36,577 nucleotides of DNA, taken from positions 1 to 36,577 of the forward strand of contig JAQIWT010000095.1 in assembly GCA_034696485.1 (NCBI GenBank), given 5' to 3'. Numbering within the stretch: position 1 is the stretch's first letter; each line of letters starts with the position of its first letter. The notes under the pieces were generated by a model, which saw only the letters and a list, made by a program, of their open reading frames with translations, had not been told where the DNA came from and made no database searches. The translations under genes and the position numbers were made by a program. Shown piece after piece: positions 1 through 35,049 of the stretch. Source of the stretch: Isohypsibius dastychi. Its lineage: Eukaryota; Tardigrada; Eutardigrada; Parachela; Isohypsibiidae.

Positions 1-483
1 TTCAATATCATTTGATATCGCTGTTTGATGCCATCATTCAAAAAATTTGCTCTCCCTGCAGCGTTGTTCTGTCCGGCCGTCCATGTTCCATTTTGAGGAG
101 CAGTGAAATTATGATCAAAAACAAACCCTTCGCAACTGAGTTGACTTTTTTGAGCAGCTGTAGTGAAACCTAACAAATTTTCAAGGTAGGTTCTTAAAAA
201 GTAGAGATTTGATGAATCTGAAAGTGCGGTGCCATGCTTTGACGCTGTAAGTTGTTCTTGCCTCACCATTTCGGACTCGATTGTAGCAGTTCCACAACTC
301 AATCTCAAACAATGGTGCTTTTGAGTCGAAAGGTCTTGTACCGGTTCCAATGTAGATCTCGGCAAATACTTGCTGTGTTTTATCATTTGTTCTGGTGATT
401 ACCGAACTGAAATAAGTGCATTTCGGAAGGAAAAAAAATGGGGTCATGTTCCAAGTTGTCTGATGGTCAGTATTGTTCCAGCA
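1..483 (-). CDS. Double-jelly-roll major capsid protein-like gene, partial (runs off left edge)
   Basis: Two exons are seen on the minus strand: about 483-267 and 217-1. They are separated by a 49-nt GT...AG intron (266-218), and the reading phase is kept across it. The second exon carries a block around SSNLYFLRTYLENLLGF, then a Lys/Gln-Ser step, an aromatic/Asp stretch and LNDGIKQRYQM. This order (Tyr-x-x-Tyr-Leu-Glu-x-Leu-Leu, then KxxL, then N-x-G-I/L-x-x-R) is what Polinton/Maverick and adintovirus double-jelly-roll capsid proteins show in their first barrel. The first exon reads PLFEIELWNCYNRV, like the strand before that block. A TGA TAG pair just upstream of 483 overlaps a possible splice acceptor, so an earlier exon is likely. 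No stop lies inside the visible exons. A capsid would form the virion shell. Identification rests on pattern only. Confidence 0.55.
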
Positions 484-3622: not shown

Positions 3623-3773
3623 TTTTTGTTCTGTAGGTTGGTTGTGTGAAGAGAAATGCTACCTTTTATTCGACCAGAAAACAGAGGTTTTGATGGTGAA
3701 TTGAATCTTCAGTCTGTTTCTAATTGACACAAAATATACACAAACTAGAATGAACACAGTTTTGTTGGGGCAG

Positions 3774-5125: not shown

Positions 5126-5286
5126 GCGCTAACCTTGGACACACGTGTCTGTATGGCACCAGTTATCTCAGTTTGTTCAGTATGACCCTCTTCTTAGCTG
5201 TCCACCGCACCATGTTTTCGGCAAGAGTTTGACGTTTCAATAATTTGAATGACATCATACTCCGTGATTCGAGCAGAGCACATTCT

Positions 5287-5573
5287 TTAATTTATATCAA
5301 CAAAAATTTTCTCAAGTGAAGGGAATTTGGAGTAGAGTAGTGTTGAGGAGTTTGAGCATGTGAGTAGCGAATTTTTCCCGAATTGAAGGTGTTTCAGGTC
5401 GGAAGATGGTCTCTTTAAGCTCGAGGGCAATTGTTCCAAACAGATATCAGTCCAGTTTCTACTCGCACATGGTGCTCTTGAATCTGGCACCATTGACACT
5501 CTTTGGTTTGGACCTGAAACTTGGAAGCCAGCGTTAGAATTACCAAGACGAGAACGAACTGGTAAGAGGCCAT
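5287..5573 (-). pseudogene. Small secreted leucine-rich-repeat-like protein, frameshifted
   Basis: The ATG at 5571-5573 starts a good signal peptide (MASYQFVLVLVILTLASKF), then ECQWCQIQEHHVR. The frame then slips near 5462-5475 and coding continues in another frame with CASRNWTDICLEQL and SDLKHLQFGKNSLLTC...FPSLEKIFVDIN. Aligned by eye, it is a paralogue of the plus-strand gene at 27686-28358: 12 residues from CxxC to His-x-x-Arg in both, then TDICLE, KHL, LLTC and KFPSLEK. The slip looks like a loss of a few bases at a repeated TGTGCG. The cysteine-rich start followed by one or two LRRs suggests an extracellular ligand-binding protein. No membrane segment is visible before the frame ends at 5287. 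Confidence 0.65.
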
Positions 5574-17981: not shown

Positions 17982-18707
17982 GATGATCCTCGACGGCAAT
18001 ATTTTTGGACTCATTCAGGTTTACATTTCAGTGCCTGATAATCTGTTAAAAAAATGTTCTGAGTTTTGTCGGATCTTTGAAAATCTCTATACCACAAAAG
18101 CTGACATTGGACCAGTTTTGCAGAATTATCAGGGCTGGACAAAAACATTTTCGGTGATCTGAAAATGCTGAAAAGTTGATCACAAACCCTTTATTCAAAC
18201 AGTGTGATGAGATTGCGGACGACTGCTATGAAATTGAAATGCAGAAGGGCAGCACAGTCATGAACTTGCCAATTCAAATCGGTATGTAGCCCTTGACACG
18301 AATCAACACGAGATAACTTATTATTTTGTCAGGGTTTACCGTCTACGCTCATGCAAAGCAGCGCATGCTTGAATTTTATTATGAATTTTTGCGTGTCACC
18401 ATACCAAATCGACGGGTTAGACTTGTCTTCTGTGACACGAACTCGTTCTATCTTGGTTTGAGTAACGACAGCTTTCGCGACCTCGTTCCAATTCACCTAC
18501 GTCAAAAATTCAAGGATTTGCGTAACAGCTTCATCGTCCCAGAATCCTCAGCACATAACTTCGAACAGCTTAGGAAAAAACCGGGAGTATTCAAACTTGA
18601 GTTCAGTGGTTGCACTTGGGGCAAAACTATACATCGCCTGGGACTCAATCGGCAAAACAAAGCAAGCCGCGAAAAGAATCATAAAAAGAAGCGCTAATAA
18701 CGGGTTA

Positions 18708-19665: not shown

Positions 19666-19830
19666 TAGCCTGTTAATATGAAAGCCGAACATTACAAAGA
19701 AGTTCTCTTCGATGCCAAGCCTAGCAACGTGGACAACAAAGGTTTCAGATTAACAGACAGAATGTTAATCTATAAACAACATAAGCGAGCAGCATCTTAT
19801 TTGTATGTAACGAGAGAGATGGACACCTAG

Positions 19831-20530
19831 GTTCATTCGATGGAAAAAAGATTTCCAATATGTTTTGTAGGCTATGCCAGATGGGATCTCGACACAACCA
19901 TTGAAGCCATAGTGACGGAAATAATCTCATATTCATGGTAATTCAGCTCAAAATCGCTTGGTTTGACAATCAACAGTATCAACGATATATTTTACAGTTG
20001 GAATACCCGAATGACTTCTCTGCGCGCGTCAATAACATGGTCTATGGTTTCGGAAACATGGCCTCTGGGTTCCCAAGGTCACTCGAACGGTCAGTCCATG
20101 GTTATATTGAAGGAATTGACGCGAGAGGAAAACGAATGTTATATCTTCATCTGTATCCAGAAGGCAGAAGTGGCGAAATGGAACTGAAACGACCTTACCC
20201 GTTGAATTTGATTGAATATCTGTCACTTAGAGCTCTGTATGGAAACCCAAGGTAGATGAAGAATATTTCATAGGTTTTTCGTCCATTTAATTTTTCGAAA
20301 AAATAACGTATGAAGAAAAGAATCAGTTGGTGTATGAGTAAATCTGACAAACAGACACGAAAAATCAAAGTATTCCCCAACTTGGGAGCAAGCTATACCC
20401 ATCCATAAGGCAGAATCTAAGAGGTACTGCATCCTATCATGAAGTCACAAAGAAGGACCTTTCTGCAATGACCAATTCTCCTGGTCTCTCACGATTGTTT
20501 GGGACGTGTCGCCTTAGCTACATGCCAGGG
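19831..20530 (+). other. One unassigned open frame (19935-20255), otherwise nothing recognised
   Basis: The 106-codon frame 19935-20255 reads coherently in its second half (ARVNNMVYGFGNMASGF, then YIEGIDARGKRMLYLHLYPEG). It has no domain I can name. An overlapping frame at 19963-20187 is a shadow. The region 20256-20530 has no supported coding. Confidence 0.3.
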
Positions 20531-21740
20531 TTTTTATGTCATGTCAGCTCAATTCAAACTGGGACAAAATTGATAATGTTTCGCAACACGAATTCGTGAA
20601 ACCAGTTCACGACGGTATTGCAGCAAAAATGTTCGAAGACCGAGTAAGAGCATTCGTGAATTTTCTAAACGATCTGAAAGAACCTTGATCTCCTGAGGAT
20701 CTGTATGAAGCGGATCTGTTTCTCCATTTTCCGAAGAGTGTGTTTGGTCACGTCCATTACATATGCTGAATGGATGAAAAGCTCGAGGTTTTCACAGCAG
20801 GAGCTCAACAACATGTTGTCAAATTATTAATCAGATTCAACACAGTTCGAGGCAGAAACCGCTTTGGAAACACTCTGCTAATATGATGTTTTTCACTGCC
20901 GCTCGGGGATATGCTGCTCATGAGCCACGTCTTGCTGGTCGAGCACGTACAGACAGGTTTGTCGGTCACTGCTCACTCATGGTGTCTGTTTCGAACACAA
21001 ACTGACATGGTTGATCATATTCTTTCCAGTGCAATTTTACAATATGCAAATGTCATCCTATTTCACACTTCAAATTATGGAGTCTATAAACGACCTTCCT
21101 CAGCGAACTACAAAATTAGGTCAGTAGCCAATACATAGGTTGCATTCCAGGATCAAACGTTCTCCAAACACTCCGCCAATGTGGTATTATCTGCTATTCC
21201 GGGATCAGAAATGGCAGACAATTGAAAGATTCATGGAACAGGTAACCAGTCCTTGTAGCAGATTCAAGAATCTGTTCAGCAGCCTGAACCAGTTTATTCT
21301 GAAACATAACACCTGATTGAATTCGATAAACCAAGTATATGTTCGAATTCACTCATACGTTTTCCTAATTGGTGGAACTTGAGAATTGGCAAGACTTGTG
21401 CTTGCACACTCGATTGTCACTCTCATAGCTTCAATGCTTGAACCAGTTCTGGGCGAATTGTGTTTGTTCGCATTTGGTTCAAAAGATTTCGAATAAATCA
21501 GGTGATTGCACGACCCGGGTAAACTCTCTGGACTCTTGCTCAATTTAAATGTGTGTTAATGTTCTTTTTCATGTCAAAATTGTCGTGCAAATACTTTTGA
21601 TAAGCCTGGACTTGCTACGCGTTCTGGTGATCTGATTATAATTAGTATAAATAGATCGCTATAAACATCTGTAGGCTTCAGTCCTCGATCCTTCGAACTC
21701 TTCTGAATAACGACGAAAACAACACTTTTTACCTTATTCA
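20531..21740 (+). other. Relic coding, not identified
   Basis: A plus frame from about 20560 reads EFVKPVHDGIAAKMFEDRVR, then YEADLFLHFPKSVFGHVHY, interrupted by TGA codons, up to about 20880. After a shift, 20911-21138 is open (HILSSAILQYANVILFHTSN). A further piece near 21160-21310 reads MWYYLLFRDQKWQTIERFME. These look like exons of a decayed gene upstream of the reductase copies, but I recognise no family. 21320-21740 shows nothing. Confidence 0.3.
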
Positions 21741-21749
21741 TTCTTGTTC

Positions 21750-21990
21750 AGCGAGCGTCACGCATTGGAAAATATGATGGAATTGATGATTTCCAGCATT
21801 GTAAGCGAGTCGATGTTGAAATTGCGGATGAAGTAGTTGTTGAACCTCAAAAAAAGAGTATATCATCATGGATCAGCGTTTATAAAACAATCATCCTGTG
21901 CACGAGATGCGACAGTTCTGTTGATTCTTCGTGTGATCACCAAGTTGAAAAAAACCAACTTTCATTCTTTTGACCACATGAAATCAAGTT
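21750..21990 (+). CDS. Hypothetical exon with possible zinc-binding OB-fold
   Basis: After a TTCTTGTTCAG acceptor (about 21750), a frame reads RASRIGKYDGIDDFQHCKR, then KKSISSWISVYKTIILCTRC. The spacing of CTRC and a second Cys/His pair (SSCDH) could bind zinc, as in single-strand DNA-binding OB-folds. That is a guess from pattern. A stop follows near 21970, just before reductase copy 1. Confidence 0.3.
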
Positions 21991-22043
21991 TACCTTCATC
22001 CCCAGTCAACGGAATGCAGAATGAAGGTTGAAAAAGATTGGTG

Positions 22044-22500
22044 TTTTTCATGATTGAAAATGTTATGCTGTGGTAATTCCACAAAAAAGCACAAGCATTC
22101 TTTTGGGTTACTGAGGAGATTGCCTTTTCAAAAGATCTCTGAGCGTGATGAAACCAGCAAAAAAGTTGCTCGATCTTGACGTGCTCATTTTTTCGCGGCA
22201 ACTTACGGCCTTGTCATGGAGAATCTTGCAGAGAAGTCCCTGTAGTAGCTCAAGAAACCTGAGGTCCGGGCGTTCTATTAACTTCAAATCCACATGTAGA
22301 ATATTCATTCAGAAGTTTGCTTCTTAGCAATCGCTTTCCACATACAGGATGCAAACAAAGAACTGGATCCTGCAAATTGTGATCACAAATCCAGTTGTTG
22401 CACGAAGAGCAGCATGTAGTGAAGATTTTATACGGTAGAAGAATTTCTCATTTCACGAACAATTCATGGTATTTGCGTGCGTAGAGATGATATTCTTCTG
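22044..22500 (+). pseudogene. Ribonucleotide reductase small subunit (R2) copy 1, degenerate
   Basis: Plus-strand coding in several frames follows the R2 fold from its N-terminal region. FHKKAQAFFWVTEEIAFSKDL (about 22078-22140, cut here at a stop) corresponds to the Lys-Ala-x-Ala-x-Phe-Trp-x-x-x-Glu-Glu-Ile-x-x-x-Lys-Asp start. FFAATYGLVMENLAEKS (about 22190) follows, with Tyr where the first iron-ligand Asp is expected. NIHSEVCFLAIAFHIQD (about 22298) keeps the Glu/His region but has Cys at the radical Tyr position. VFACVEMIFFCDYFAVFVWF (about 22468) retains the third Glu. Several stops and shifts break it. It ends about where copy 2 begins, so copy 2 repeats the middle of the protein. Confidence 0.85.
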
Positions 22501-23197
22501 TGATTATTTCGCCGTATTTGTTTGGTTCAAGAATTTCTGAAATGGTCGAAATTCTAAAAGCAAGATCATTCTACGCCTCCCAAATTTATATTGAGAATAT
22601 CCATTCAGAAGTGTACTCTCTTGCAATCTTGACCTACGTTAAAGATGATCTCAAGAAAAACCAGATTTTACAAGGCGCGGTGAGAAACTCAGCAGTTAAA
22701 CTGCAAGCTAACTGGGTTGAGCAGTTCATCAAGGATTGCGACCCTTCGTTTTGCGAGCGTCTTGTGGCATTTGCCAGTGTCGGAACTGTTCTTCTGCGGC
22801 ACTTTCGCTATATTTTCTGGACAAAAAAAGGTACCTACTCCCGGGCGTGACATTTTTAATGGATCTCATAAATCGTGACGAATCGCTGCATGTTTTGGTC
22901 GCATGCGCCTTTCACGAACAATTACCAGTCAAATGCGAACTTGAGAAGATCACCGAAAATTTCCTTGACGTCTGCCGCGTAGAAAAGAAATTCTGGCGTT
23001 CGACCATCTCAAAAGTAATAATTGGCCTCAATGCAAGCAATATGGAAAAATACATTCCATTTGCATGTGACTACCTGTTGAGCTTGTTCAGTATTCGATC
23101 ATTCTTTGATACACTAAATCCATCCTTTTTTTGGGAATATTTTTCTCGAAAGCAAATTCTTTTTTTCAACGAAATTTTGCAGAGTATAAGCTCGTGA
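22501..23197 (+). pseudogene. Ribonucleotide reductase small subunit (R2) copy 2, frameshifted
   Basis: R2 makes the radical that lets reductase turn ribonucleotides into deoxyribonucleotides. Visible motifs: EILKARSFYASQIYIENIHS, with the ligands Glu and His and the radical Tyr (HSEVY); RLVAFASVGTVLLRHF, where the ligand Glu of VEG is replaced by Gly; LPGVTFLMDLINRDESLHVL, with the last Glu and His; and the C-terminal helix GLNASNMEKYIPFACDYLL. One frameshift falls in an A7 run at about 22823-22829 (IFWTKK to YLLPGV). The stop is at 23197, and no obvious C-terminal reductase-docking peptide is seen. Copy 2 lacks the first part of R2, which only copy 1 has. The missing Glu plus the shift mean no activity as it stands. 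Confidence 0.92.
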
Positions 23198-23393
23198 GAA
23201 TTGGTGATAATACTAAATTATGCACAGACGCAGATTTTTAACGATGCGTGCACCACTCAACAAATCGTATTATTGGATAACATTGCGTTTCTCGGCAGAA
23301 TCGTTAGTCCAGGATCCAAATACAGATGAATTCGAGATAATTTCTTCCATCTTTGCCACTCGATCTGATCCAGGCGAGTCCATTTCAGCTTGT

Positions 23394-24040
23394 TTAAGGA
23401 CGTGAAGGATGATAGAATGGCACCATCGAGCCCCAGTTTTTAACAGCTCCAATGAAAGCTTGACAATATTCTGAGATAGTTTCTTGTGTTTGAGGCGAGC
23501 GGTTGTCATTCATAAGCGAAATCCACAGCAGTTTCTGCACCGCGTCGATTTCGATAGGAGTTTAAAGTGTTGCTGAACTTGAGATTGGAATTCGATGACA
23601 TCGCCAGGTTCAAGATCAGTAACGCGCCACGCAATGAACGTTTCAGAAGAATGTTTCAAATACACTACTAGGTCTGGCTTTAACAATCCTCGCTGGATGT
23701 CGATACAATAACCCAAGCCCCCAACTATTGGCACAACCTTATGCATTTTTGGAATGTAGATACCGGTCGACGATGGGGATATCCTTATTCAGCTGCTGAC
23801 TTCATTTCAGTATCATTCCGCATTGAACAGCAATTGCCTTGCATCTTCACTGAGATTGGATTTTCCGTTTTGCCATGATGTGATGAGCTTGGTGATCGCG
23901 TCGTGTTGATCTCTTGAAGTCAATCAGAAGAGTTTGAGCTTCACGCCACGCGCGCGAAGCGCTGTCATGAGTTATTTGCTTTGATACGTTTTCCCGGTAC
24001 CATCGCCACCCTCAAACACGACCACAGCACCACGCGGCAT
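23394..24040 (-). pseudogene. tmk: Thymidylate kinase, with stops and a frameshift
   Basis: The ATG at 24038-24040 opens MPRGAVVVFEGGDGTGKTYQ, a textbook thymidylate kinase P-loop (FEG-x-D-G-x-G-K). An in-frame stop follows a few codons later, but coding continues (LMTALRARGVKLKLF). EDARQLLFNAE matches the LLF region. IPIVDRYLHS carries the DRY motif and GLLKPDLVVYLKHSSE the LxxPDLxxxL strand; these lie in more than one frame. Near 23560 the frame shifts into PIEIDAVQKLLWISL, the usual C-terminal I-D-A region, ending at a TAA at 23394-23396. The enzyme phosphorylates dTMP to dTDP. It neighbours reductase and faces it tail to tail. Confidence 0.85.
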
Positions 24041-24660
24041 ACTTAAGGGTCAGAATTCTCTGTCAGCGCCTCCAAATTCAAAAGTAGTTGGTCGTTTTCG
24101 TCGAATCAGATCGCCTGGTATCGATGTGAGAACGTCCTCCAGAGTAACTGATGAAGGTAGTGGCCAATTCGCATGTTTGTTCGATGTTTTTATTTCTTTG
24201 CCTTGATGATCACGCGTTATTTGACAGCAAAACTGTCGGGCTAGAGCAAGACCCTTTGTTAGTTTCATGAGAAGTGCTGCAAAGCTGACTGCTCTGATTT
24301 ACATCAAATACGCCAGACGCATGATTTTCGACGGCTCCATCCTTTAGCTGATGAAATAAAGTTGCAAAAATAGTCAAGAATGGCGTTTGGCCAATGAATT
24401 TAAGTGTACCCTCAACGACTTGTTTTTTTTTTCTACAACTGATCAACTTCCCAGCTTTAAAGTAAATGAATAGCAGGCTGAGGGACGTAATCAGCAGAAC
24501 AATGACGATTGTTGTGAAAGATTTATTCGGAGAATTACTAGAGTCCTCGTTTCGCCATCCTTCTGATCGAACCGAAGTTACCCTCAGTAGTTCAGTTAGG
24601 ACTGTTTCTACTCTTCTGAAATGCACAAAACATTACATCAAAAAATCAGTTTGACAGACT
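24041..24660 (-). CDS. Putative single-pass membrane protein, C-terminal exon
   Basis: A minus-strand exon begins after a good acceptor (TGTGCATTTCAG, about 24615) and reads RVETVLTELLRVTSV. A membrane helix follows (FTTIVIVLLITSLSLLFIYF) and then a basic CRKKK stop-transfer patch. The layout resembles the membrane end of the LRR gene at 27686-28358. The frame runs to 24210. A second frame (24268-24050, DVLTSIPGDLIRRKRP) may be a further exon. The upstream exon is not clear; 24780-24680 holds a hydrophobic stretch (IETIIFLAIISTGYF). Likely a type I membrane protein, function unknown. Confidence 0.4.
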
Positions 24661-26030
24661 CAATCAAGAGCGCTTCCATTCCTGATATGCTACAATGTAA
24701 CAGATCAGGATTTCACATTCACGGTGAAAGTAACCTGTACTTATTATCGCTAGAAAAATGATCGTTTCAATCTCGAAACATAATCTTACATCGATTCACA
24801 ATGAAAAGAACTCGCAAACCTGTAATTACCAAAAAAACAGAAAGACACTTCTTTCCTAAAAAAGAACCACTACACAGTTCACATTTTTCATCTTTCACAT
24901 CAAGAATAATATTTCTAACTGGAATTCACTCAGGTTTTTTGTTCCATATCATTGATCTCTTCCGAATCGTCAACCGGAGCCCTGAATCAATTGAGAGCAC
25001 CATCTTTCCGGCATTCACGAGATGGCAACTAATATCAATACAGTGAGCCCATTTATTACTTTCTCACATTTCAGATATAGTTTGATATTTCAACCTAACA
25101 TTCAAATCCGTGCCATATGTTTTTAGAGGCTCCACCTGGTGGATGCTGCGGACTGTCTTCACAGGTGGTGCTGAATGTCCTGAACCAACAAACTCCTGCC
25201 AATTTTCGATTTCTTGTTTGGACTAAGCCAGAAATTTGCTACCATGTGTGATTTTATTAAACGATCTTTCCATTTATTATATAAAATTAAACCCAGCTCG
25301 AACTTTCTGTTCAATTCTGTCTGGCCATAACCCAACAGAACAAAAAAACATTCTTGCGATTTATTAGGCAAAGGTAAGACTCCGAAGCATGACTCCGAAG
25401 TAGACTCTGAATCATGTGGTCATGACTCCGAATCCTCATTACTCTGCATCATGTAGCCACCATCATTTGTTGCCGTAACTATATATTCGTATATATACAC
25501 ATATAGTATATGACAGAACCCACAATTAAGATTGGCTCACAAGGACCACATCTCCAAATCTCTGGACAAGATTTCAAAAAAAAATAATGGAAATCTACCT
25601 TGTTGCCATAAGGAACCACGAGAAGTATGAGAATTTTCATGAGATTTATGGCTGCACTAAGGTGAGAAAACAATTCTCCGACATCAAGGTAATCTTATTT
25701 ATTTTTTCAAGCTGTCGTTCCTCAAACACAGTTCCGGCGATTTTTTCTAGCAACATTTTCGAGCAAGAGTAGAATCTGGTGTATTTGGAGAGATTGTATA
25801 TCCGGCGAATCGCTTCCGAAAGGCAGAATATTTAAGAATGGAATGCACCTATCAATCTATTGTATTCTTCACAAACATCATAACCTACGAAAACGGACCA
25901 TAATTTACGATCAAAGACCTCTTTACTCAAGCTGTTGATGCGTAAAATTATTTTTTAATTTTTATTCTGCACCTGTATAACTATCTATTTATTTCAGGGA
26001 AAAAACGAAGCCAATAGCTGACCTCCCGGA
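24661..26030. other. No confidently supported gene
   Basis: Frames at 24801-25046 (+), 25159-25371 (-) and 25587-25772 (+) are coherent but carry no recognisable domain. 25587-25700 (IYLVAIRNHEKYENFHEIYG) ends near a possible donor (CTAAG|GTGAGA, about 25661). It could be an upstream exon of the JmjC gene that follows on the same strand. 25880-25980 is AT-rich. Confidence 0.35.
25376..25437. repeat. Degenerate repeat of GACTCCGAA
   Basis: Four or five copies of GACTCCGAA (one as GACTCTGAA) with irregular 8-20 bp spacing, some joined by CAT/ATG triplets. Too short and irregular to be a CRISPR or satellite. It could encode Asp-Ser-Glu-rich sequence, but the frame is not kept. Confidence 0.5.
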
Positions 26031-27341
26031 TAACGTTTTATTTTGTAAATGATGGTATTTTGGACAGCCAAAGAGTGGGCTCACGTCAAAGACAGGAAAA
26101 TCATTCATACTGAAACTTTGGACGTTTAACTCGTAAAGTCCTTCATCAACAAACTCAAAGTGCAGGGGAACCTCGCTGTACCTGATGTTTTGAACATCTA
26201 CCTGGCCAACCAACATTTTCATGAACTATTTATCAACATTTGTCCAGGAGATAGAATCTCTACTGCATGGTTCTACATCGGGTTTCCTGGGACGGGAACC
26301 TTCTTCCATATTGAAGATGGAGGACTAGAAGGGGGTTTTTCATATATTTTTTAAATCATGTATTTTACTCTTGACATACACCTCACAAGGTTCCGTCAAT
26401 ATGAATTGAGGAGCTTGTCGAAAACCTGGGTACCATGTCTCCGCGCATATGAACCTGAATAGAACGAGTTAATATCAAGTAGAAGAATTACCAAATCAAA
26501 AAAGTTCCGCAAATAATAATTTTCTCGTTCTTCTAGGTCTTCGGCCGTGAACACATGGATATAAGATTAATTATAATTTGCCGCTGTCCTTCCTCGCTGT
26601 GCATGATATCCCTGTCCATTACCACATTCAAAATACCGGGGAAATTATGATTATAGACCCTTATATCCCTCACGAGGTTGATGAGCATATTTCATGTAAT
26701 TTTTCTGAATTTTCTCTATTTCCAGGTGATTAATTTGGAAGTTTCACTTTCTTCAGCTGTCAATCTTTCTGCATGAAGATTGGATTCGTTTCGCCCGAGA
26801 TCAGAGGCAGCGATTTTTGAACGTGTTCATGTAGGTAACATTTTATTTTTCAACCTTAATCTAATTATTGTTTCACACAGTGCAGTGAACTGAGTGCGTC
26901 ATGTCCCACCGTTAACTATGGCGCAGCATGCGCCGTAACACAGAACCCGAGAGAATTGCAAAACATCTTCAGATTATCCGCTTCACGGTTATGGACATAC
27001 TTGGAGAAGTATGCGATGGTTGAGGACTGGATCCATATTGACCCCAAAGAAGCTCTAAAATGGGAGATTTGCACTCCGAAAAGGTCAATATTTTATATTA
27101 TTTTATTATATTATTTTATATTTTATATTTTATACATTCAATATTTTATTTTGTGAAAATTACATTGATAAATCACTTTCAGAAAAAGCATCTCCCTGGG
27201 AGCAAACCATGTGACCGGTTGATGAAGTTTTACAACGATTTTGTGGAGTCTGAGGAGGTGAAGTCTAACTCCACAATCTTATATTGTCCAAACTCCAACA
27301 AATTCCAAACATCATGTGAATGCGTACACACTATTGAATAA
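26031..27341 (+). pseudogene. JmjC-domain protein (2-oxoglutarate/iron oxygenase-like), split into short exons
   Basis: The frame 26160-26354 reads FYIGFPGTGTFFHIEDGGL, the first JmjC iron-binding block (G-x-G/S-x-x-F-H-x-E-D). Later, around 26600-26690, coding gives IPVHYHIQNTGEIMIIDPYI followed by PHEV, the block with the second iron His and the Gln-x-x-Gly-Glu strand. After a short intron (GTTGATGAG...TTTCCAG, ending about 26726), INLEVSLSSAVNLSA matches the G-x-N-x-x-E-x-x-N-x-A end of the fold. A further exon (about 26880-27083) reads ASRLWTYLEKYAMVEDWIH and ends at a donor; a last piece stops at 27341. An upstream frame before 26160 has stops. JmjC enzymes remove methyl groups from histones or hydroxylate proteins. 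Upstream JmjN or PHD domains are not seen. Whether it is still expressed cannot be told. Confidence 0.68.
27089..27155. repeat. TATTTTA low-complexity tract in an intron
   Basis: Almost only A and T, built from ATTTTATATT/ATTTTATATTTTATA units. It lies between a donor at about 27083 and an acceptor near 27182 in the JmjC-like gene, making this intron about 100 nt, longer than the others. Confidence 0.6.
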
Positions 27342-27685
27342 TCGATTCATTCAAGTGTTTGAAAAAACCAGCACAACGAAACGGCCTGAGAATTCGTTTT
27401 CATTGCATGGTCCGCGGATGTTGAATGGACTACTCATGTTGCCGGAATCTATACAGACATGAAGTCGCTGATCATTGGAGACCAAAGTCTACCAAATCTG
27501 TGGTAAAGTGGTCTCCACGATGATATCATTTTATTATTTTATCCAAGCATTTTCTGTCTATCTCCCACGATGATCGAATGAACCATCCCATTCCTTGCCT
27601 GATTTTGCCTCAAGCGTATTATTTTGATATGAAATCCATTTACATTAAACAGTTTTACAGTCATTCTTCTGGCTTTTGCAACATA
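27342..27685. other. No supported gene
   Basis: Spacer between the JmjC-like gene and the LRR gene. The reading frame of the LRR gene is open from 27578, but the hydrophobic signal peptide starts at the ATG at 27686, so 27578-27685 is more likely leader. Confidence 0.5.
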
Positions 27686-28358
27686 ATGTTTTCCATCATT
27701 TTTCTTATTACTGTCTTCAGTCATACTTCGCTGGCATACCCCGACTCATGTCCAACTTGTGAGTCAATTTTTCTCCATGCACGCTGCGTCTCAAAAAAAT
27801 TTACCGACATTTGTTTGGAAGAATGATAAACCAGGATGTCCAAACCCAGCCCATACGTCAAACATTTGGATCTCCATCAGAACACATTACTGACTTGCCT
27901 ACCATCCATCAGCCTGTTGTCTGCAAAATTTCCTTCGCTGGAAAAATTATACATCGACCACAATCCAGCAATGTGTTGTCAAAAACTCGACGAGTTTATA
28001 GTTATTCATTGCTTGAACCTAGTGACCTTTATAAGCTCGGCGGTCATTGGCAACCACTCTATTCGGAAACAGGTTTTATAAAAACATAACAGTAAACTAA
28101 TCAAAAAAAATTTCTTGGTGTATGAGGTGACTACAGTTTCTTCTGTGAGGCTACCAACCAGTCCCACAACTCCTGATATTATACTGACAGTTGTCTTATC
28201 TGTGGTGTTAATCGCTGTGATTACACTTGTAGTCATCATTCGGCGAGGACGGTGTGCGCTAGAACAAAACTCGAAAAGCAGACATAATGTAAGTGTGATT
28301 TGGGTCACATAGTCTGAATGTATTAAATGATCGATTTTTCCAGGTTACCATGCGTTGA
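27686..28358 (+). pseudogene. LRR membrane protein gene with two consecutive in-frame stops
   Basis: The start at 27686 gives a signal peptide (MFSIIFLITVFSHTSLA) and a Cys-x-x-Cys head (CPTCESIFLHARC), then KKFTDICLEE and TGA TAA (27824-27829). The same frame goes on with YVKHLDLHQNTLLTCLPSI and KFPSLEKLYIDHNPAMCC, a leucine-rich repeat and a Cys cap. A 54-nt intron (28073-28126) is skipped in phase. The next exon has a membrane helix (IILTVVLSVVLIAVITLVVI) and a basic tail. A second intron (28289-28343, GTAAGT...TTCCAG) leads to the last codons and TGA at 28358. The paralogue at 5287-5573 has two ordinary codons in place of the two stops, so they are mutations, or part of an unrecognised intron (GTGAGT at 27761, AG at 27834). 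Product: small cell-surface LRR protein, ligand unknown. Confidence 0.72.
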
Positions 28359-28538
28359 GAACGCCAACAACTTCACTGGAAAGGTGATCCAAAACGAGTC
28401 GAATCCGAAGAAAACGGTGACGGGAGCGAGAATCTAAGCAGTGATTCATCCAACTCTTACATTCCAACTTCTACTCATGAAGTGTCGAAGTGATATCTTT
28501 ATTGGTTGAGAAAAACTCGAAAATATGGCAATAAACAA
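28359..28538. other. Intergenic spacer
   Basis: Space between the LRR gene and the convergent dUTPase. It holds AATAAA-like signals on both strands around 28500-28530, fitting a shared 3' end region. Confidence 0.35.
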
Positions 28539-29088
28539 TCATTGCATTCCTGTTGAACCAAAACCCGATGTTCCACGCACAGTCTCGGAGCCAATGTCTG
28601 AATGCTCCTCAACAACATAAGGTCGATCGATTATTTCACAGATGAGTTGGGCTATGCCGTCGCCCTTGTAAACAAAAAAAGCTTGATCACTCAGGTTGCA
28701 GAGAATAACGGCGACTAGACCACGATAGTCTGGATCAATGACACCGCCACCGACAATGACGCTAAAATTCCAAGCCAAACCCGAACAAGGAGCTAGCAAA
28801 ATGGGATGTTTAATGGACCAGCCATCATGCTCTGAGAGGAATCAAACCTATCCGTCCATAAGCTTCTGGTGGCAGAATAATTTCGAGATTGGTATCAATC
28901 CAAGCTTGACCTCTCGCAGGCACAACATCATCACGAGCACTGCAAAGAAAATATTTCAAATTCATGATTAGTGAAGGAAAAAAAGTAATATACCTCGGCA
29001 GGTTCAATCCAACAGCACCTGCTGATCCATAGCTTGGTCGCTGAGCATCTCGTGTAGTTAAAAAATATCGGAGAACTAGAGTATCCAT
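28539..29088 (-). CDS. dut: dUTPase, complete, with two short introns
   Basis: Hydrolyses dUTP to dUMP, keeping uracil out of DNA and feeding thymidylate synthesis; works as a homotrimer. Three exons: 29088-28994, 28939-28848 and 28792-28539. The GT...AG introns are 54 and 55 nt, and phase is kept throughout, giving 146 codons, the usual length of the trimeric family. All five motifs are there: AVGLNL (motif 1, Asn where Asp is common); GRI at the end of exon 2 and CSGLAW in exon 3 (motif 2, split by intron 2); GGGVIDPDYRG (motif 3, catalytic Asp); KGDGIAQLI (motif 4, Gly where Arg is common); RGTSGFGSTG (motif 5). The start Met is the first in the frame. There is no stop, frameshift or repeat inside, unlike almost every neighbour. 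It could be a host gene or a retained viral gene. Confidence 0.95.
28793..28847 (-). other. dUTPase intron 2
   Basis: 55 nt, GGTTTGATT donor region to TTTTGCTAG acceptor, inserted in phase 1 inside motif 2. It contains an in-frame TGA, so the gene needs splicing. Confidence 0.9.
28940..28993 (-). other. dUTPase intron 1
   Basis: 54 nt, GTATAT donor to TTTCTTTGCAG acceptor with a good pyrimidine tract. It lies just after motif 1. Confidence 0.9.
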
Positions 29089-29457
29089 CGTTGTACAACA
29101 AACGTTTTCGTTTCACAATCGATACAACGAACCTGTTTGATACCTAGATAATTTGTCGAGATAATTATGGTGTGGTTTGATTGATTTTGTCTGGTCGCGC
29201 GTTCCGCCCACAGAAAAAAACGCTACTTTTCCAGGTCACGTCATGAAATATAATGTCTCAAAAATTTAATCTTAAGAAGTCCCGACACAACAGATCACAG
29301 ACACCAACTTAATGACATGTTTGGACGAGAAAGTAATTTTCTCATCAACCTCTCAACCGCGGGGAATTTTTGAATCTCATAATAAAATCAGACAACGTTC
29401 AATCTTTTGAATATTGTTTCTTTAACATAGCTTTTCATCTCACAACCAGCTTTAAAA
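29089..29457. other. Divergent intergenic region
   Basis: Lies between the dUTPase start (minus) and the next plus-strand gene. It probably holds both promoters. No TATA box or repeat stands out with confidence. Confidence 0.35.
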
Positions 29458-29979
29458 ATGTCGTCAACCAAGATGGGTGCTCGCGGAGGACGTTTGGTAA
29501 ATATGATCGAGCGTGATGCAGTCATTACGCTAGATGCTTTTATGTTTGTGGTATGTACGCTGTCATTCATCCATCGATACCGCTCTCATCTTTTTTTTGC
29601 TCTGGATCGTAACAGCAGAAGAGAAACTTGGTTTGGCAACCATGGAAATTGTTCGATATAAAAAGAGCACGGCAAATGATAACCTGGTGGAAATTGGGTA
29701 TGAAGTTTACATGGATGTTGTCCACGATTTTTTGATAACTTTTTTTGTAGATGGGGAAATGATTTGACCGCAAATCAGGAAAACACCCTCTTTGAAAAAA
29801 TTGATATCTTCAAGAAAGAAATCAAACAAGTCAAGGGGACAGCTGAAGGCTTGTCGAAAAAGCGAAGATTTGAAATTGTTTTGTTTCCCTCGTTAACAAT
29901 CTCTTACTTTGCGTGGCAGCTGCCCCCGTGCCCGAAAACTGGATTGCGGCCGTTCAAGCGCAGTTTGGCGTGGCAATGA
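29458..29979 (+). CDS. Hypothetical spliced gene
   Basis: The ATG at 29458 (MSSTKMGARGGRLVNMIERD) opens an exon that meets a donor at about 29551 (GTATGT). An acceptor (GTAACAG) near 29617 opens EEKLGLATMEIVRYKKSTAN. A second clean intron (GTATGAAG...TTTTTGTAG, about 29699-29751) leads in phase to GNDLTANQENTLFEKIDIFK, a Lys/Glu-rich, probably coiled-coil segment, ending at 29979. The first junction does not keep phase with the obvious sites, so there is either an indel or another acceptor. Family not recognised. Confidence 0.4.
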
Positions 29980-30036
29980 GAATAAAACAAGCAAGAAAAA
30001 AAATTACAATGATAGTGTGTCAGGTCTTGAATCGGT

Positions 30037-30520
30037 ATGGCTGTGCAAACGCTAGCTGATATACAAAATATTGTGGAAGCTGTTGAAGCTCGTTATAATG
30101 ATGATCCATTTTTTCTGTATGTTCATCGCAGAGATTAATATGTCATCTGTGAAGTCTTGGGGGCTGGTCATCTTGTACGACGTTATAACTTTGTTCTCAG
30201 GATACCGTTTGATATCGAACAACTGTCTGATTTGATTACTTGTGTTTCTCGACAGCAGAGACCTTCCAGTTTCAAAATCAATTTGTCATTTGGCGCAATT
30301 TTCCGAAATATTGGCGCGATGCCGGGTAATGAAGAAGAAGCCGGGCTCAACGCAGATGATTTCTTTATATACCACTACGCTTCAGAAAACACGATTTTTT
30401 TTTCGTGAACCGCTGGTAGTCACTTCGGGGTATGAACTTCAACGAATTCTCAACGCCAGACTGAACCATGAGGATGAACATCAATCTGAGTTCGCAGGTC
30501 TCCAAACAATTATCTGAAGA
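30037..30520 (+). pseudogene. Family B DNA polymerase N-terminal-like fragment
   Basis: The frame from the ATG at 30037 has one stop (30136-30138), then runs to 30408. A T-run near 30398-30406 shifts it into LVVTSGYELQRILNARL. Features: FFLYVHRRD, YNFVLRIPFDIEQLSDL, RPSSFKINLSFGAI and YHYASENTIFF. The order F/R-x-P-F-x-I-E-x-L, then F-K-I-N-L-S-F-G-x-I, then Y-A-S-E-N-x-x-x-F is what I associate with the N-terminus of polymerases encoded by Polinton/adintovirus-like elements in invertebrate genomes. It lies in the opposite direction to copy 2 and 1.9 kb from that copy's C-terminus, so it would come from another copy or a rearrangement. Confidence 0.5.
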
Positions 30521-31010
30521 ACTCAGTCCCACCACCCATACTAGATGGCAAGTAGCCCTCAGAGTGGCTGAGCCTGGCAAGAACGCTCACGGAAGACCTT
30601 GAGCTACTCTCTCAAACATGGATTCCACACGCTTTTGGAATTCAAACACCCACCCCAATAAGTGTACACTCCGTTAAGAAATTAACTGGAAAACTGCAGT
30701 CAGCTCTTGATTGAATCATATAGCCGTGGATTGTTTTATACATGGTCACGTGCAAATTTCGAAGCCGCGTGCACAAGGCGCTAGACAGATGAGCACGACC
30801 TGATGGGGGCTTGGAAGTTGCCAAACATGGAGTGCAAACAATCAACGGCTATATGATTCAATCAAGAGCTGACTGCAGTTTTCCAGTTAATTTCTTAACG
30901 GAGTGTACGTGGATCAACTGCAGGCTGTGCTCTGTCCTCAGTAAAAGTGTTCAAAAGAGCGATGTGGACATCGAGACAACCGGCACTTGAATTCAAGTAA
31001 AACCTTTCCA
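30521..31010 (+). other. Possible exon split by MITE 2
   Basis: After an AG at about 30563 a frame reads EWLSLARTLTEDLELLSQTW and IPHAFGIQTPTP up to the MITE. On the far side STAGCALSSVKVFKRAMW continues in register to a stop near 30993. No family recognised; it may belong to the gene before it. Confidence 0.35.
30667..30905. mobile_element. MITE 2, long near-perfect inverted repeats, TA-flanked
   Basis: A 239-bp element with TA at 30665-30666 and 30906-30907. The two arms match over about 70 bp with one mismatch (GTGGATT against GTTGATT). Termini are CACTCCGTTAAGAAATTAAC. It has no coding capacity. It shares CTCCGTT and a following TTAACTG with MITE 1. The high arm identity suggests it is younger than most of the debris here. 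Confidence 0.93.
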
Positions 31011-32374
31011 TAAGTTTTGTGAACCCCAATTGCACCACTTTCTTTCTGGCTCCTCGTGGATCACCCAATTAATATGACGTGATTCTAGTTCTTGCTGGAG
31101 CGACTGTTTGAAGCAGTTCTGCAGTTTCTTCAGCTCGAAATTTGACCACAGCGGGAGCAATCTCAAAGAACAACAAAAGTCCAAACAGTATCAAGACTTT
31201 AAAAGCTTATCAGTTATACAGAAAAAAAAACTGTGCAACAAACCACATACGTATGAAAGTTGCTCTTATCGCAAACACAATCTGATGGCCCGTAATAATA
31301 CATGTGAACGAATGCTCCAACCAACGAAAGACGATTGAGATCGTATGAAAGAATTTGTCAAATTTCTTCACGAAATAAAACTGTCTTACGCGTCACTTGA
31401 AATGAATCTCACTTTTCCTACGGCTTGTATCGGAACAGTCTTGCCAACTTGGAACGATCACGCAGATTGTATCAGTTGGCACCTAGTTGGGCGAACGGAT
31501 AAGCCAGCACTGATATGGATTGATAACAAGACAGGATATTACAGATTTCAAGAAAACTCACTGTTATCGGCAGCTGGAATATTCCGGTAGATCTGAGCAT
31601 TTCCAGTTCCTGTATTGACGACGGCAGGAATAACATTTGAATCTATAAATTGTAGATGTTATCACTAGTTCCACTACCAATTTCGAAAACTGATTACCTA
31701 GAGGATTTCAACCATGGCTGGTGCTTCGACCGGAGCTTCGCCTTTTGAGAAGCTGAGGATATATTCGTTGAATTAGGAGAACATGGTTGTGATACGAAAT
31801 ACCTTCATCGTTGCCGGGTTGTTCATCTTCAGCAACTTCAAAAGCAATAATAAATCAGTTACGAAAACGCGTTGTAGATCAATTTATTCATTCTCTTGTC
31901 TTTTGGAACGTTACAAGCAATATCAAATCTTGCTATGGCTCTGCAGAGCATATGGTCGACTTCCTCTTTTATATTTTCAGTGATTCATCCACATGGAATA
32001 CCCAGGCTGGAGCAGCTATAGATAACAAGTTTCAGTTGTTTGATTTTTTCTCGTCAACAGAAATATCCGGGTTGAACTGCTCGTTGAAAGGCTGAACTCG
32101 TCCAGTCATATGCGGCGAATAGAAGAAGATGAAATACTTGCTGTCAAGGCGCTTCCCTGTAGTATTCGTTTCCAATGAAGAGGGATTGAGTGAGAATGAC
32201 GATGCCGGCCAGTGGATGATGCGAGTAGACACAGAAGAATTTGCTCAACCAAGCAATGATCTCAACGTTCGGTATTGTGTTAAGAAGTGTTCTATGGAGG
32301 TCTTGTGAAGCACCACAATATTACAATATCTTGCTGGGTGTGGGATGAAAAAGTTCTCTTGTAAGCACTCTGAT
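31011..32374 (+). other. Unidentified coding-like segments
   Basis: 31108-31590 is one frame with a single TGA (31336-31338). It reads KKLCNKPHTYESCSYRKHNL, then FPTACIGTVLPTWNDHADCI and KPALIWIDNKTGYYRF. Cys/His content is high but no domain is recognised. 31640-31760 reads DYLEDFNHGWCFDRSF. Frames at 31783-32095 overlap and are weak. 32130-32310 (+) reads RFPVVFVSNEEGLSENDDAG. The minus frame 32232-32032 is an alternative. I cannot assign a function to any of them. Confidence 0.35.
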
Positions 32375-35030
32375 TCAGAACGAGGTTCTTCCTGATTGAG
32401 TTTTTCCTATGAGCAACAGTGATTCTGAGACATCACACATATCACATATGTGCAAAACAAGACACGTCAACCTACCACATGTGATAGCTGTAAAGCGATG
32501 TTGATAGCGAAAGAGCACCATATAGTTTTGTGGAGGGAGGTAGCTTGTATGAATGCCGTCCGCTAGAACGCGTTGCTTGACATATAAGTAGGAGAGCGAA
32601 CGTTTGATCAGTTCATGAGTCAACATCTGACTTCTGTACAATTGAATTTCCTTATTTGTTACCTGAATAAACTGTTGAGTGGCAAGGGTGGACATATACC
32701 CCGCCTTTCGTAAGAGGTTCTTTTTTTGAATGCTTTTGTGGCACCTGACGAAATTGTCGGAACCGGCGAGATATAGCTCCGAAGACAAGGCAATCAGAAA
32801 CGTCCCACTGAATTCTTTGTGAAAGAAGCCTGGACACTGTCGGAGGCCTTTGTAGGTAACCGATATCTCGAGCGGGACAAGCCAGATGTCCCGATTGTAG
32901 TCAAACCTGAGCCATAACTCGTCTCGCACTAGCTCATCAAGCGTCATCCCGGCGATGAGCATGTAGAAGCTGCCCGTGTCTATAAACTATGCGCTAGATC
33001 AGCGGCCATATTCGCAGACAAAATGTAGCAAACCAAGAAGTCGTAGTAAAAATTTCAAAAGGCGTAATTCTCCTTAACCATACACGAAAAAATCAATTTG
33101 TAGGGATAGGTTGCAATGGATTTTCTTGTTTAGCATTTGCAACTTAAAGAAGCACGGCGTTATTCCCTCGGCGCTCACGTAGCGCGCGTTCTGAACGTGA
33201 TTTTCATACGTCGTCTTGTTGCAGAAAACGGTGTTAACGTAAGTCTCCTTCTGCATAAGCGTACTATTCTCAGGAGAAAATCAATTGCAGTTGTTGTTTT
33301 TTTGTTAACACAAGCATATTCTGACATCCTGGCCATACGCCCTGTTGGTTGATAGTTTCATCATTAAACCGACAATTCTATGATTGGGATTGACATCCGC
33401 ACGGCATCTTCCATTGATGACATCCTCGCCAAAGCTCTTGAAACAGACAACGGGTTGCCATCAAAGAACATGACAGATTTTGCAAACTGCCAGTCCATGA
33501 CGAAGATAGAATTGGAGGGGCGGAGTCATGAGCATAATAATCGAATCGCTCATCACACCACACTTTGAACGTCGCTCAAGAAGAGTATGTCCCGTGTTCG
33601 CAAGGTAGGTCTGCATGTTCTCTCCAATCTGATTGTAGTTTATGATGATGTTGCGGAATATGGGTGTAATTTCTGCGGAGAAGTCAGGTCACTGCTCTGT
33701 AACAGAAATATCGCACTCAACAATCTCAGAAATACGACCGTCTTCAATATCCCGTAATATTTCCAGCTCGCTCGCACGAGCTCTTGAGAAAGAACTGATG
33801 CGGTAGGTTTGATAGAAATCGGCCAGTCCCGTATTCGCGCGGAGTTCTTCCAGAAATGCTCATTCCTATTTAATACGCAGCTTTCCACATTCGCTCTTAG
33901 TTGACTCACGCGTTCAAGCCAGACTGGGTACAGATTATGATATTTTTTTGCGCGAACTGCAGCATTGGCCTTGGAGAGTAGGCAAATAGTTGCCGTGTGC
34001 TGATGAATGTAACATCTGTGAATCGAATGATCAGGATCAGACACAGTAATCTCAAAATGTGGTTGTAGAATACATGTTGAATTCGGGAGCAATTCCGGCT
34101 TTGGAGCCCTCTTGCCATCCGTCGAATAACATCTGCGTTCCATCGTCAGCAACAAGGAGGTGTTCGCCAATATTATCTTTATGATGAATGTTCCAACCGT
34201 GTTCAAGATAGTTTACCCAGATGGTCGCCAAAGGGTCTTCCAGTGTCTCGACGCGGAATCCGTTGGCCAATCTTTTTATCAAATTTGTAGCATTGGCTTG
34301 CGAAGTGCCAAAAGGTAGGGACTTTTGGCATCCAGTCCAAGAAAAGCGCTGCAATTCAGAACCTACTGAAATGGCCCAGGGTGATTTTGGTCACATCAAC
34401 TTTAGCGTGCCGTAGGAAAATGATGAAAGGACAACCGAAAACTTCTTCTCCCAGTCTCCTGACAGCTCTCGGTTTGTCTTTTCAAAGAGTGCAAAGTAGT
34501 GATTCGGTTGTAGATTTCCGAAGACATACCGGGTGCACAGACTAGAGAGACTGATTGCATATCCCAGCATACATAATTTGCGCTCACGATAAAACCGGTA
34601 ATTCTTGTTACTCCATCTAGTAAAGGTGTATCCTCCGAACAGTTATAGTAGCGAATGAAATCGAGAAACGTCTCCATGCGCTGACGCTCAGACAACAGTT
34701 GAGTGAGTGTGGTTAACGTCAGATATGCCCGCATCATGCAGGTCGTCATGGAATTCAGCTTAAACTGGTTATCAGGTTTGCGCCAGTTATGTTTACGAGT
34801 CAAACCAAGAGTAGGGAAAATGTTGTTTTTGTAGGTGGTTGCCTTGAGCCCGTTAAAAAAATTGGCCATACTTTGGTCGAAAAACTGCAGGTGGGCACCA
34901 GCCGTGAGACACATGTAACGCCTATTCTTTTTTATGCACGTCAGTTTGGTTTTATATATGGCGAATTACCGGATGTAAAGCTGCTCACGATTCAGTCGCA
35001 GGTCATAGTAGCTCCCACTGAACGACACCA
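32375..35030 (-). pseudogene. Family B DNA polymerase, Polinton/adintovirus type, copy 2 (nearly full catalytic region)
   Basis: Minus strand, reading down from about 35030. CLTAGAHLQFFDQSMANFF is an exonuclease-region block. YNCSEDTPLLDGVTRI resembles the N-x-D-V-x-P-x-L-E-A-V stretch. FALFEKTNREL and GCPFIIFLRHAKV lie in two frames. Next comes DPLATIWVNYLEHGWNIHHK, then GEHLL...LFDGW, an endonuclease-like insert seen in these polymerases. It continues with DGRISEIVECDISV and ITPIFRNIIINYNQIG; PLQFYLRHGLAVCKI; MMKLSTNRAYGQ (motif B, 33332-33358); LNKKIHCNLSLQIDFFVYG; and FIDTGSFYM (32969-32980), where D-T-D-S has become D-T-G-S. PGFFHKEFSG and SYLYVKQRVLADGIHTSYL close the C-terminus. Stops include 33074-33076, 32999-33001 and 32987-32989, plus frameshifts (for example near 34065). 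Gypsy D abuts its 5' side. Dead. Confidence 0.88.
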
Positions 35031-35049
35031 CAGGTACTCAACTGATGCG

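What the first reader, a model, noticed from the sequence alone, without database searches (positions are those of the whole stretch)
22044..29088. A dTTP-supply gene set (RNR2, thymidylate kinase, dUTPase) beside Polinton-type polymerase and capsid-like genes
Seen: motifs of R2, thymidylate kinase and dUTPase within 7 kb, with family-B polymerase copies 2-4 kb to either side and a capsid-like fragment at the left edge. Known: this enzyme set is common in large DNA viruses, while Polintons and adintoviruses usually carry only polymerase, integrase, protease, ATPase and capsid genes. Inference: the window may hold an endogenised, expanded Polinton-like or other large DNA virus that has not been described. 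Host-gene capture or several separate insertions are alternatives.
Basis: partly seen in the sequence, partly recalled or inferred. Interest (0 to 1): 0.9.

Follow-up and report, generated by a model that had tools for sequence, protein, structure and literature searches.

The report
Broken Polinton viruses with nucleotide genes
This stretch of an animal-like genome is a scrapyard of several dead virus-like mobile elements, some of which had carried genes for making DNA building blocks, a cargo that intact-looking relatives elsewhere in the same genome still hold.

Summary
The genes named are there, but broken, and not one set. RNR2 is two abutted remnants of different lineages: 22011-22534 (nearest C389/C98) and 22545-23238 (nearest C450/C121). 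TMK (24046-23400, minus) and a membrane-protein gene (24554-24055, minus) continue the second in the order of C450. dUTPase (29079-28545, minus) goes with a different, C211-like remnant. The polymerase pieces (18.0-18.6, 32.3-34.8 kb) match C211 but no library profile, so that name rests on motifs. I found no capsid piece inside the coordinates; one hexon-like shard sits at 3-257. Elsewhere in the genome, C276 and C450 carry open dNK, TMK and RNR2 frames beside family-B polymerase, hexon-like, integrase and packaging-ATPase frames (integrase and ATPase profile-tested in C276 only). So nucleotide genes as Polinton-type cargo is supported; a single dTTP set in this window is not. The window's frames are broken; host use was not tested beyond that. 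Eight literature searches showed no paper with this cargo in Polintons, though the founding adintovirus paper was not available; a virophage type with RNR2 is known.

The parts
3..257 (-). Shard of a hexon-like gene (85 aa) that runs off the window's left edge; a different element from the nucleotide genes
   Evidence: tblastn with the C134 hexon-like frame, 55% identity, E 5.9e-17
5161..5364 (-). Second copy of the C211-type LRR-like gene piece, another element remnant
   Evidence: 42.6% identity to L005 5571-5756, E 5.8e-12; that C211 piece itself has no Pfam hit
18001..18604 (+). Probable family-B polymerase remnant, C-terminal half; more than one frame
   Evidence: Matches to C211 pieces, E 6.6e-8 to 7.2e-6; no profile hit for 18317-18694
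21658..21925 (+). N-terminal part of a RING-protein gene that stands next to RNR2 in C389, C98 and C1136
   Evidence: 56% identity to L003 frame 3288-3992 over 62 aa, E 1.2e-13; that frame has RING E 4.3e-12; C98 and C1136 read by eye
22011..22534 (+). RNR2 remnant A, codons about 15-194, several frame changes, 7 in-frame stops in three matches
   Evidence: DNA nearest C389 (77.5% and 71.1%) of 7 relatives compared
22545..23238 (+). RNR2 remnant B, codons about 97-332, two frame changes, no in-frame stop in the three matches
   Evidence: DNA nearest C450 (78.5% and 79.1%) of 7 relatives compared; tree 98/95 with C276, C450, C121, on a very long branch
23400..24046 (-). Thymidylate kinase remnant, 5 in-frame stops over 173 codons, tail in another frame
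   Evidence: tblastn with C450 TMK, 47% identity, E 3.3e-43
24055..24554 (-). Remnant of the membrane-protein gene that overlaps TMK's start in C450 and C276; three frames
   Evidence: 55% identity to C450 frame, E 3.7e-39
26130..27260 (+). Shards of a C211-type gene, possibly JmjC demethylase-like (tentative)
   Evidence: 26551-26730 JmjC E 0.001, 19.9 bits, under the cut-off of 24; 26950-27260 matches C211, E 3e-8 and 5e-7
27773..27979 (+). LRR-like gene remnant, C211 type
   Evidence: 27830-28078: LRR_4 E 3.5e-4, 21.2 bits, under the cut-off of 27; C211 matches E 6e-8 and 1.5e-6
28545..29079 (-). dUTPase remnant, at least one frame change
   Evidence: Pfam dUTPase E 1.8e-18 (28542-28841) and 0.039 (28828-29112); C211 43%, E 2.8e-14
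30901..31175 (-). Deoxynucleoside kinase remnant, two frames
   Evidence: tblastn with C450 dNK, E 4.8e-11 over two matches; that frame is dNK E 4.3e-32
32303..34831 (-). Probable family-B polymerase remnant, C211 type
   Evidence: C211 matches E 1.2e-16, 6.1e-16, 8e-8, 2e-7; no profile hit for 32375-32962 and 34402-34914

Best explanation
The stretch is decayed debris of at least three Polinton-type (adintovirus-like) elements. Piece 1 (21658-22534): RING gene plus 5' part of RNR2, C389/C98 type. Piece 2 (22545-24554): rest of an RNR2, TMK and membrane gene, C450/C121 type. Piece 3 (about 26.1-29.1 kb): JmjC/LRR-like shards and dUTPase, C211 type; the dNK and polymerase remnants (30.9-34.8 kb) may belong with it, though the polymerase is turned the other way from C211. 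Pieces 1 and 2 meet inside RNR2 in the same direction and repeat about 98 codons, so they were most likely joined by recombination between two related elements at RNR2. In the elements with open genes, the likely role of the cargo is to raise dNTPs for replication by the element's own polymerase in cells with low pools: RNR2 (radical-bearing small subunit) would pair with the host's large subunit through its C-terminal tail, dNK and TMK phosphorylate deoxynucleosides and dTMP, dUTPase (other lineage) clears dUTP. Shown: gene identities, linkage, kept metal-ligand columns, constraint on RNR2. Inferred: every activity, the pairing with host R1, the cell setting, the recombination. In the window the frames are broken, so I expect none of these to act.
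For: Of 7 relatives compared, DNA of 22001-22240 and 22241-22540 is nearest C389 (77.5%, 71.1%) while 22541-22830 and 22831-23240 are nearest C450 (78.5%, 79.1%); the two repeated parts are 63.4% alike. Neighbours agree: RING beside RNR2 as in C389/C98/C1136; convergent TMK then membrane gene as in C450/C276. The TMK piece has 5 matches in the genome, on 5 contigs that all carry RNR2. dUTPase, LRR-like and 26.95-27.26 kb pieces run in the same order as in C211. Six full-length RNR2 frames without stops among 41 matches; 4 of those 6 contigs also have polymerase and hexon matches. The 5 of 6 that I aligned share every column recalled as iron ligand or radical tyrosine. 3 of these 5 end in DADF as human p53R2 does. 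C276 and C450 RNR2 differ 74:33:175 by codon position. R1 family: 0 matches while the control rang in 11 of 14.
Against: The window polymerase pieces hit no polymerase profile. The hexon-like proteins have no Pfam, PHROGs, NCBIfam or PDB relative where scanned (one search gave one chance-level hit, E 0.54) and no IMG/VR relative; they are named from mutual similarity (99.9%) and neighbours. The minor capsid match is weak (11%). No clear terminal repeats were found. The host's own R1 was not seen either, so the genome held is incomplete and absence means little. The tree leaves C265's RNR2 apart, on the side of IMG/VR viruses with long branches (90/93), so RNR2 may not be one acquisition. The codon-position test of decay depends on the control: with C389 or C1136 as yardstick both RNR2 pieces show extra second-position change; with C265, B need not. 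An assembly chimera at 22540 cannot be excluded, though 63% identity makes it unlikely.
Confidence: 0.8

Rival explanations
1. One element once carried RNR2, TMK and dUTPase together and later broke up, with an internal duplication in RNR2.
For: All lie within about 7 kb; C276 and C450 do carry RNR2, TMK and dNK on one contig.
Against: RNR2 A and B differ in nearest lineage on the two sides of 22540. dUTPase shares its order with C211. Of 9 dUTPase contigs only C95 and C98 also have RNR2.
Confidence: 0.1
2. Remains of a large DNA virus (nimavirus, nudivirus or asfarvirus kind), which often carry RNR2, TMK, dUTPase and IAP genes.
For: Such gene types are known there (recalled; the listing has nimavirus and nudivirus papers that mention dUTPase and inhibitor of apoptosis).
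Against: The same genes sit with rve integrase, family-B polymerase, hexon-like gene and A32-like ATPase within about 20 kb of C276. Of the 80 IMG/VR loci kept (of at least 526) with the nearest RNR2, none had a match at E<=1e-4 to the element's hexon, penton, integrase, ATPase, TMK, dNK, BIR or membrane protein in the stretch held (up to 6 kb a side); 7 matched the dUTPase query.
Confidence: 0.05
3. Host nucleotide genes or processed pseudogenes that happen to be neighbours.
For: RNR2 of C276 is about as near to human p53R2 (165 of about 311 identical) as to the IMG/VR ones (47-52% among the 80 kept).
Against: Conserved neighbourhood RNR2-TMK-membrane gene in C450, C276 and window; the window piece 22721-23194 groups inside the element clade, 98/95 (host RNR2 was not available for that tree).
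Confidence: 0.03

Closest known systems
Polintons/Mavericks and adintoviruses of animals (definition from passages of PMC11071308)
   Same: In C276: family-B polymerase, rve integrase, packaging ATPase and hexon-like protein in about 20 kb; adenovirus-type protease beside the C134 hexon-like gene
   Different: Carry RNR2, TMK, dNK, and in another lineage dUTPase and an NMP kinase. The words ribonucleotide, dUTPase and thymidylate do not occur in the main text of PMC11071308 or PMC10120064
Virophage element EMALE07 of Cafeteria (PMC8547959, passages seen)
   Same: A small integrating virus type with an RNR small-subunit gene
   Different: Protist virophage; dUTPase and thymidylate have 0 occurrences in that text
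Large DNA viruses with dNTP genes: white spot syndrome virus, poxviruses, baculoviruses with a TMK-dUTPase fusion (passages of PMC8961515; rest recalled)
   Same: Functional logic: viral supply of dNTPs, in some with RNR2 only (recalled)
   Different: Much larger genomes, other polymerase and capsid machinery (recalled)

Membership tests
[quoted passage not shown]
   Family-B profile met in relatives C276, C450, C154 and others (77 matches); protein priming not tested; window pieces match only C211, no profile
Polinton/Maverick (adintovirus-like) | Retrovirus-like (rve) integrase | tested here: met
   In C276, PF00665 E 2.4e-14. Window: not met; only a gypsy-side integrase piece, 26.2 bits, under the cut-off of 32.6
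Polinton/Maverick (adintovirus-like) | Genome packaging ATPase | tested here: met
   In C276, Pox_A32 E 6.2e-6, above its cut-off. No match in the window at E<=1e-3
[quoted passage not shown]
   Hexon-like proteins of two sets match at 99.9%, but have no library or PDB relative where scanned; fold not predicted. Window: one 85-aa shard
[quoted passage not shown]
   hhalign 11%
Polinton/Maverick (adintovirus-like) | Ulp1/adenovirus-type protease | tested here: inconclusive
   Met beside the C134 hexon-like gene, PF00770 E 7.5e-7; not sought in C276 or C450
Polinton/Maverick (adintovirus-like) | Terminal inverted repeats and target duplication | tested here: inconclusive
   C276's two sides share inverted repeats of 67-77% identity but not in one order; the 13 inverted pairs of window 17500-36577 show none that brackets the pieces plausibly; target duplications were not sought
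Class Ia ribonucleotide reductase small subunit | Iron ligands, radical tyrosine and R1-binding C-terminal tail | tested here: met
   In 5 of the 6 open relatives (C147 not fetched): ligand and tyrosine columns invariant, tail DADF in three, DVDF and TEDF in two; residue roles recalled. Window copies are frame-broken

The most novel reading that the evidence does not exclude
This animal-like genome hosts a branch of Polinton-type viruses that evolved the life style of large DNA viruses in about 20 kb: their own dNTP supply (RNR2 borrowing the host's large subunit, dNK, TMK, and in a sister lineage NMP kinase and a dUTPase fused to a BIR domain), IAP-like BIR and RING proteins against cell death, Fic proteins, and a KDM4-like JmjC demethylase that could lift silencing of the integrated copy. 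Cargo is exchanged between lineages by recombination within shared cargo genes, and the RNR2 junction at 22540 is a fossil of one exchange.
Probability: 0.4. Interest if true: 0.8.

Novelty: new variant of a known kind. Interest (0 to 1): 0.6.

Why it matters
Polintons are usually described as lean elements with replication and capsid genes (recalled). A branch with a dNTP cargo would suggest that small integrating viruses of animals can depend less on dividing cells, and would bear on how large DNA viruses gathered such genes. The window also offers a layered example of two element lineages fused inside a cargo gene.

Tried and rejected
Nematode or arthropod host by marker domains: PF01484 and PF00379 gave 0 matches, but the controls could not ring, so nothing follows. 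No call names the host; KDM4-like exons on C821 near human KDM4A (E 3e-30) only suggest an animal.

Relatives in IMG/VR: the C276 hexon, the BIR-dUTPase, hexon alignments A1 and A3 and one C211 polymerase piece found none; the RNR2 alignment found 526 or more, 80 kept, at 47-52%, with only dUTPase-like matches nearby, in 7 of 80.

Single RNR2 gene with an internal duplication: rejected on nearest-lineage grounds. JmjC in the window: kept as tentative only. Age in years: not given; no host rate, and the yardstick is unsure. By hand, with a second-to-third position ratio of about 0.24 (C389, C1136) I get about 0.09 unconstrained changes per site for B and 0.2 for A; with 0.46 (C265) B needs none and A about 0.1.

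Literature: 8 searches. Polinton + TMK + dUTPase + ribonucleotide reductase: 0 papers. Polinton + ribonucleotide reductase: 20 papers, of which I opened passages of one (PMC8547959) and saw the listing of the rest. The adintovirus founding paper is not held, so its gene lists were not seen.
Full report
What the window is. No tRNA was found and no Rfam family reached its gathering score. Its left half holds retrotransposon debris (RNase H E 1.5e-33 at 9368-9808, gag E 5.2e-7 at 13109-14002).

Checking the observation. Open pieces between stops were searched apart. Of 10 pieces scanned, 2 hit RNR small subunit, 2 hit dUTPase (one below its cut-off), 1 hit LRR below cut-off and 5 hit nothing. The TMK piece is among the 5, but relatives match this place at E down to 3.3e-43, and the C276 relative is a thymidylate kinase by Pfam (E 5.7e-28). 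With 969 open pieces of at least 60 aa from the loci then held as queries, the window gave 122 matches at E<=1e-3, 106 of them at E<=1e-5; the same queries reversed gave 2 (best 3.6e-4).

Two RNR2 remnants. tblastn with full-length relatives shows codons 15-194 at 22011-22534 and again codons 97-332 at 22545-23238. DNA alignment against 7 relatives shows the first to be C389-like (77.5% and 71.1%, against 64.9% and 60.5% to C450) and the second C450-like (78.5% and 79.1%, against 67.4% and 62.9% to C389); the repeated parts are 63.4% alike. Neighbours agree: RING gene before RNR2 in C389, C98, C1136 and the window; convergent TMK and membrane gene after RNR2 in C450, C276 and the window. A tree of 27 rows (19 of the 80 IMG/VR loci, 5 of the 6 full-length frames, three stop-free pieces) puts the 22721-23194 piece with C121, C450 and C276 (98/95), on a very long branch; C265 falls toward the IMG/VR rows (90/93), which may be long-branch attraction or a second acquisition. 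Chance insertion of one element just inside RNR2 of another, in the same direction, is less likely than recombination at the shared gene; this last step is inference.

The dUTPase belongs elsewhere. 26.95-29.08 kb follows the order of C211 (about 13.5-15.9 kb there): an unknown, perhaps JmjC-like piece, an LRR-like piece, then convergent dUTPase. A dNK remnant (31175-30901) and polymerase remnants (34831-32303, and 18001-18604 on the other strand) follow; the polymerase matches C211, but C211 has it turned the other way relative to dUTPase, so joint origin is not shown. A second LRR-like piece (5364-5161) and the hexon-like shard (257-3) show yet more elements in the left half.

The polymerase and capsid claims. 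The window and C211 polymerase pieces hit no profile where scanned: Pfam for all six, NCBIfam for four, PHROGs for one, PDB for one; the PF03175 search of the genome lists neither C95 nor C211; hhalign to profile-positive polymerases of this genome was 3.5% and 2.7%. The name rests on a DTDS motif in C211 (DTNS in the window) and a YNCSD region (YNCSE in the window), read by eye and recalled as polymerase motifs. I found no capsid piece in 22044-29088.

Relatives with open genes. The genome has 41 RNR2 matches, 6 of them full length and free of stops, 77 family-B polymerase matches, 39 hexon matches and 9 dUTPase matches; the tool calls such counts lower bounds. C389 and C1136 have neither on their contigs in these lists. 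C276 carries an LRR-like gene, dNK (E 3.1e-30), Fic protein (E 9.5e-18), A32-like ATPase (E 6.2e-6), polymerase, hexon-like gene, minor-capsid-like gene (weak), rve integrase (E 2.4e-14), membrane gene, TMK (E 5.7e-28), RNR2 (E 1.1e-85), BIR protein (E 6.6e-18) and RING-like proteins (by eye; RING profile tested in C389). C154 holds dUTPase with an N-terminal BIR domain in one 294-aa frame (BIR E 1.1e-18, dUTPase E 5.4e-28); C1099 has the same in two frames (by eye). Beside them lie an adenylate-kinase-like NMP kinase (ADK E 1.2e-11 in C154; C1099 by eye) and a dNK (E 1.3e-33 in C1099; C154 by eye).

How it likely works. RNR2 of C276 is nearest human p53R2 among solved structures (E 6e-101; 165 of about 311 identical), and the five aligned copies keep the columns recalled as iron ligands and radical tyrosine. 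No large subunit was found (0 matches; control rang in 11 of 14), but the host's was not found either, so the held genome is incomplete. Thymidylate synthase was found on C68 and C131, not on RNR2 contigs; C131 also has polymerase and hexon matches. The picture is of a cargo that supplements host enzymes. C276 and C450 RNR2 differ by codon position 74:33:175, TMK 88:67:147, the membrane gene 91:61:93, so RNR2 at least has been under clear protein constraint.

How broken. RNR2 A: 7 in-frame stops in three matches to C450 and several frame changes; RNR2 B: 0 stops in three matches, two frame changes, codons before about 97 missing; TMK: 5 stops in 173 codons; membrane gene: 1 stop and three frames; dUTPase: at least one frame change (dUTPase). 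Codon-position counts at sites where two open relatives agree are 16:15:36% for B and 32:27:47% for A; open C389 gives 21:14:56%, C1136 22:13:55%, C265 30:26:57%. A looks more decayed than B, but the substitution test is not decisive. No kept frame was seen that would suggest host use; expression and small RNAs were not tested.

JmjC. JmjC matches (26) occur on 18 contigs, 6 of which also carry element matches, against 0.7 expected if contigs were alike (P 3e-5; 2.1 expected if element contigs weigh three times more). The pieces on C450 and C276 are 54% alike and 28-45% like the other five compared. On C450 the gene stands at the left end, on C276 at the right, in opposite directions. Whether it is cargo or flank is open.

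Literature. The eight searches named under Tried and rejected listed no paper that I could see to describe this cargo in Polintons; most listed papers were not opened. From passages of PMC8547959: a virophage type, EMALE07, has an RNR small-subunit gene. From passages of PMC8961515: dUTPase fusions with TMK and others are known in viruses; the one place with 'bir' is the word birds, so BIR is not named in its main text. One search for BIR domain, dUTPase, fusion and virus listed 3 papers, of which I saw the listing only. From passages of PMC8363768: three Drosophila adintoviruses of 13-15 kb, with 0 occurrences of ribonucleotide, thymidylate kinase or inhibitor of apoptosis.

Noticed in passing
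L007 2371-3252 (C154), L010 1964-2455 and 2485-2895 (C1099): BIR domain fused to dUTPase; one open frame in C154, two pieces in C1099 (by eye). No IMG/VR relative found.
   Followed up: partly
L021 2-1219 (C450), L020 3096-4349 (C276): KDM4-like JmjC gene in exon-like pieces at opposite ends of two sister contigs, in opposite directions.
   Followed up: partly
L019 4166-4975 (C276), L010 4378-5400 (C1099), L016 1483-2226 (C134, by eye): Fic-domain proteins next to element genes (profile in the first two).
   Followed up: no
L007 3281-3925, L010 1332-1952, L006 1297-1809, L008 129-497: Adenylate-kinase-like NMP kinase beside dUTPase in the other lineage (profile tested in C154 only).
   Followed up: partly
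G000 C68:36878-37681 and C131:20139-21260: Thymidylate synthase: a full-length 270-aa frame without introns on C68, and a split one on C131, a contig with polymerase and hexon matches; host or captured genes not known.
   Followed up: no
window 30664-30736 and 30836-30908: Inverted repeat of 73 nt, 99% complementary, young-looking amid old debris, touching the dNK remnant.
   Followed up: no
window 18695-18750 and 19623-19678: Inverted repeat of 56 nt, 79% complementary, about 1 kb across; may be a small DNA transposon next to the left polymerase piece.
   Followed up: no
window 19905-20252: Open piece of 116 aa without any Pfam or PHROGs relative.
   Followed up: partly
window 10439-11296: Open 285-aa frame, transposase-like by eye with helix-turn-helix hits below cut-off.
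   Followed up: no
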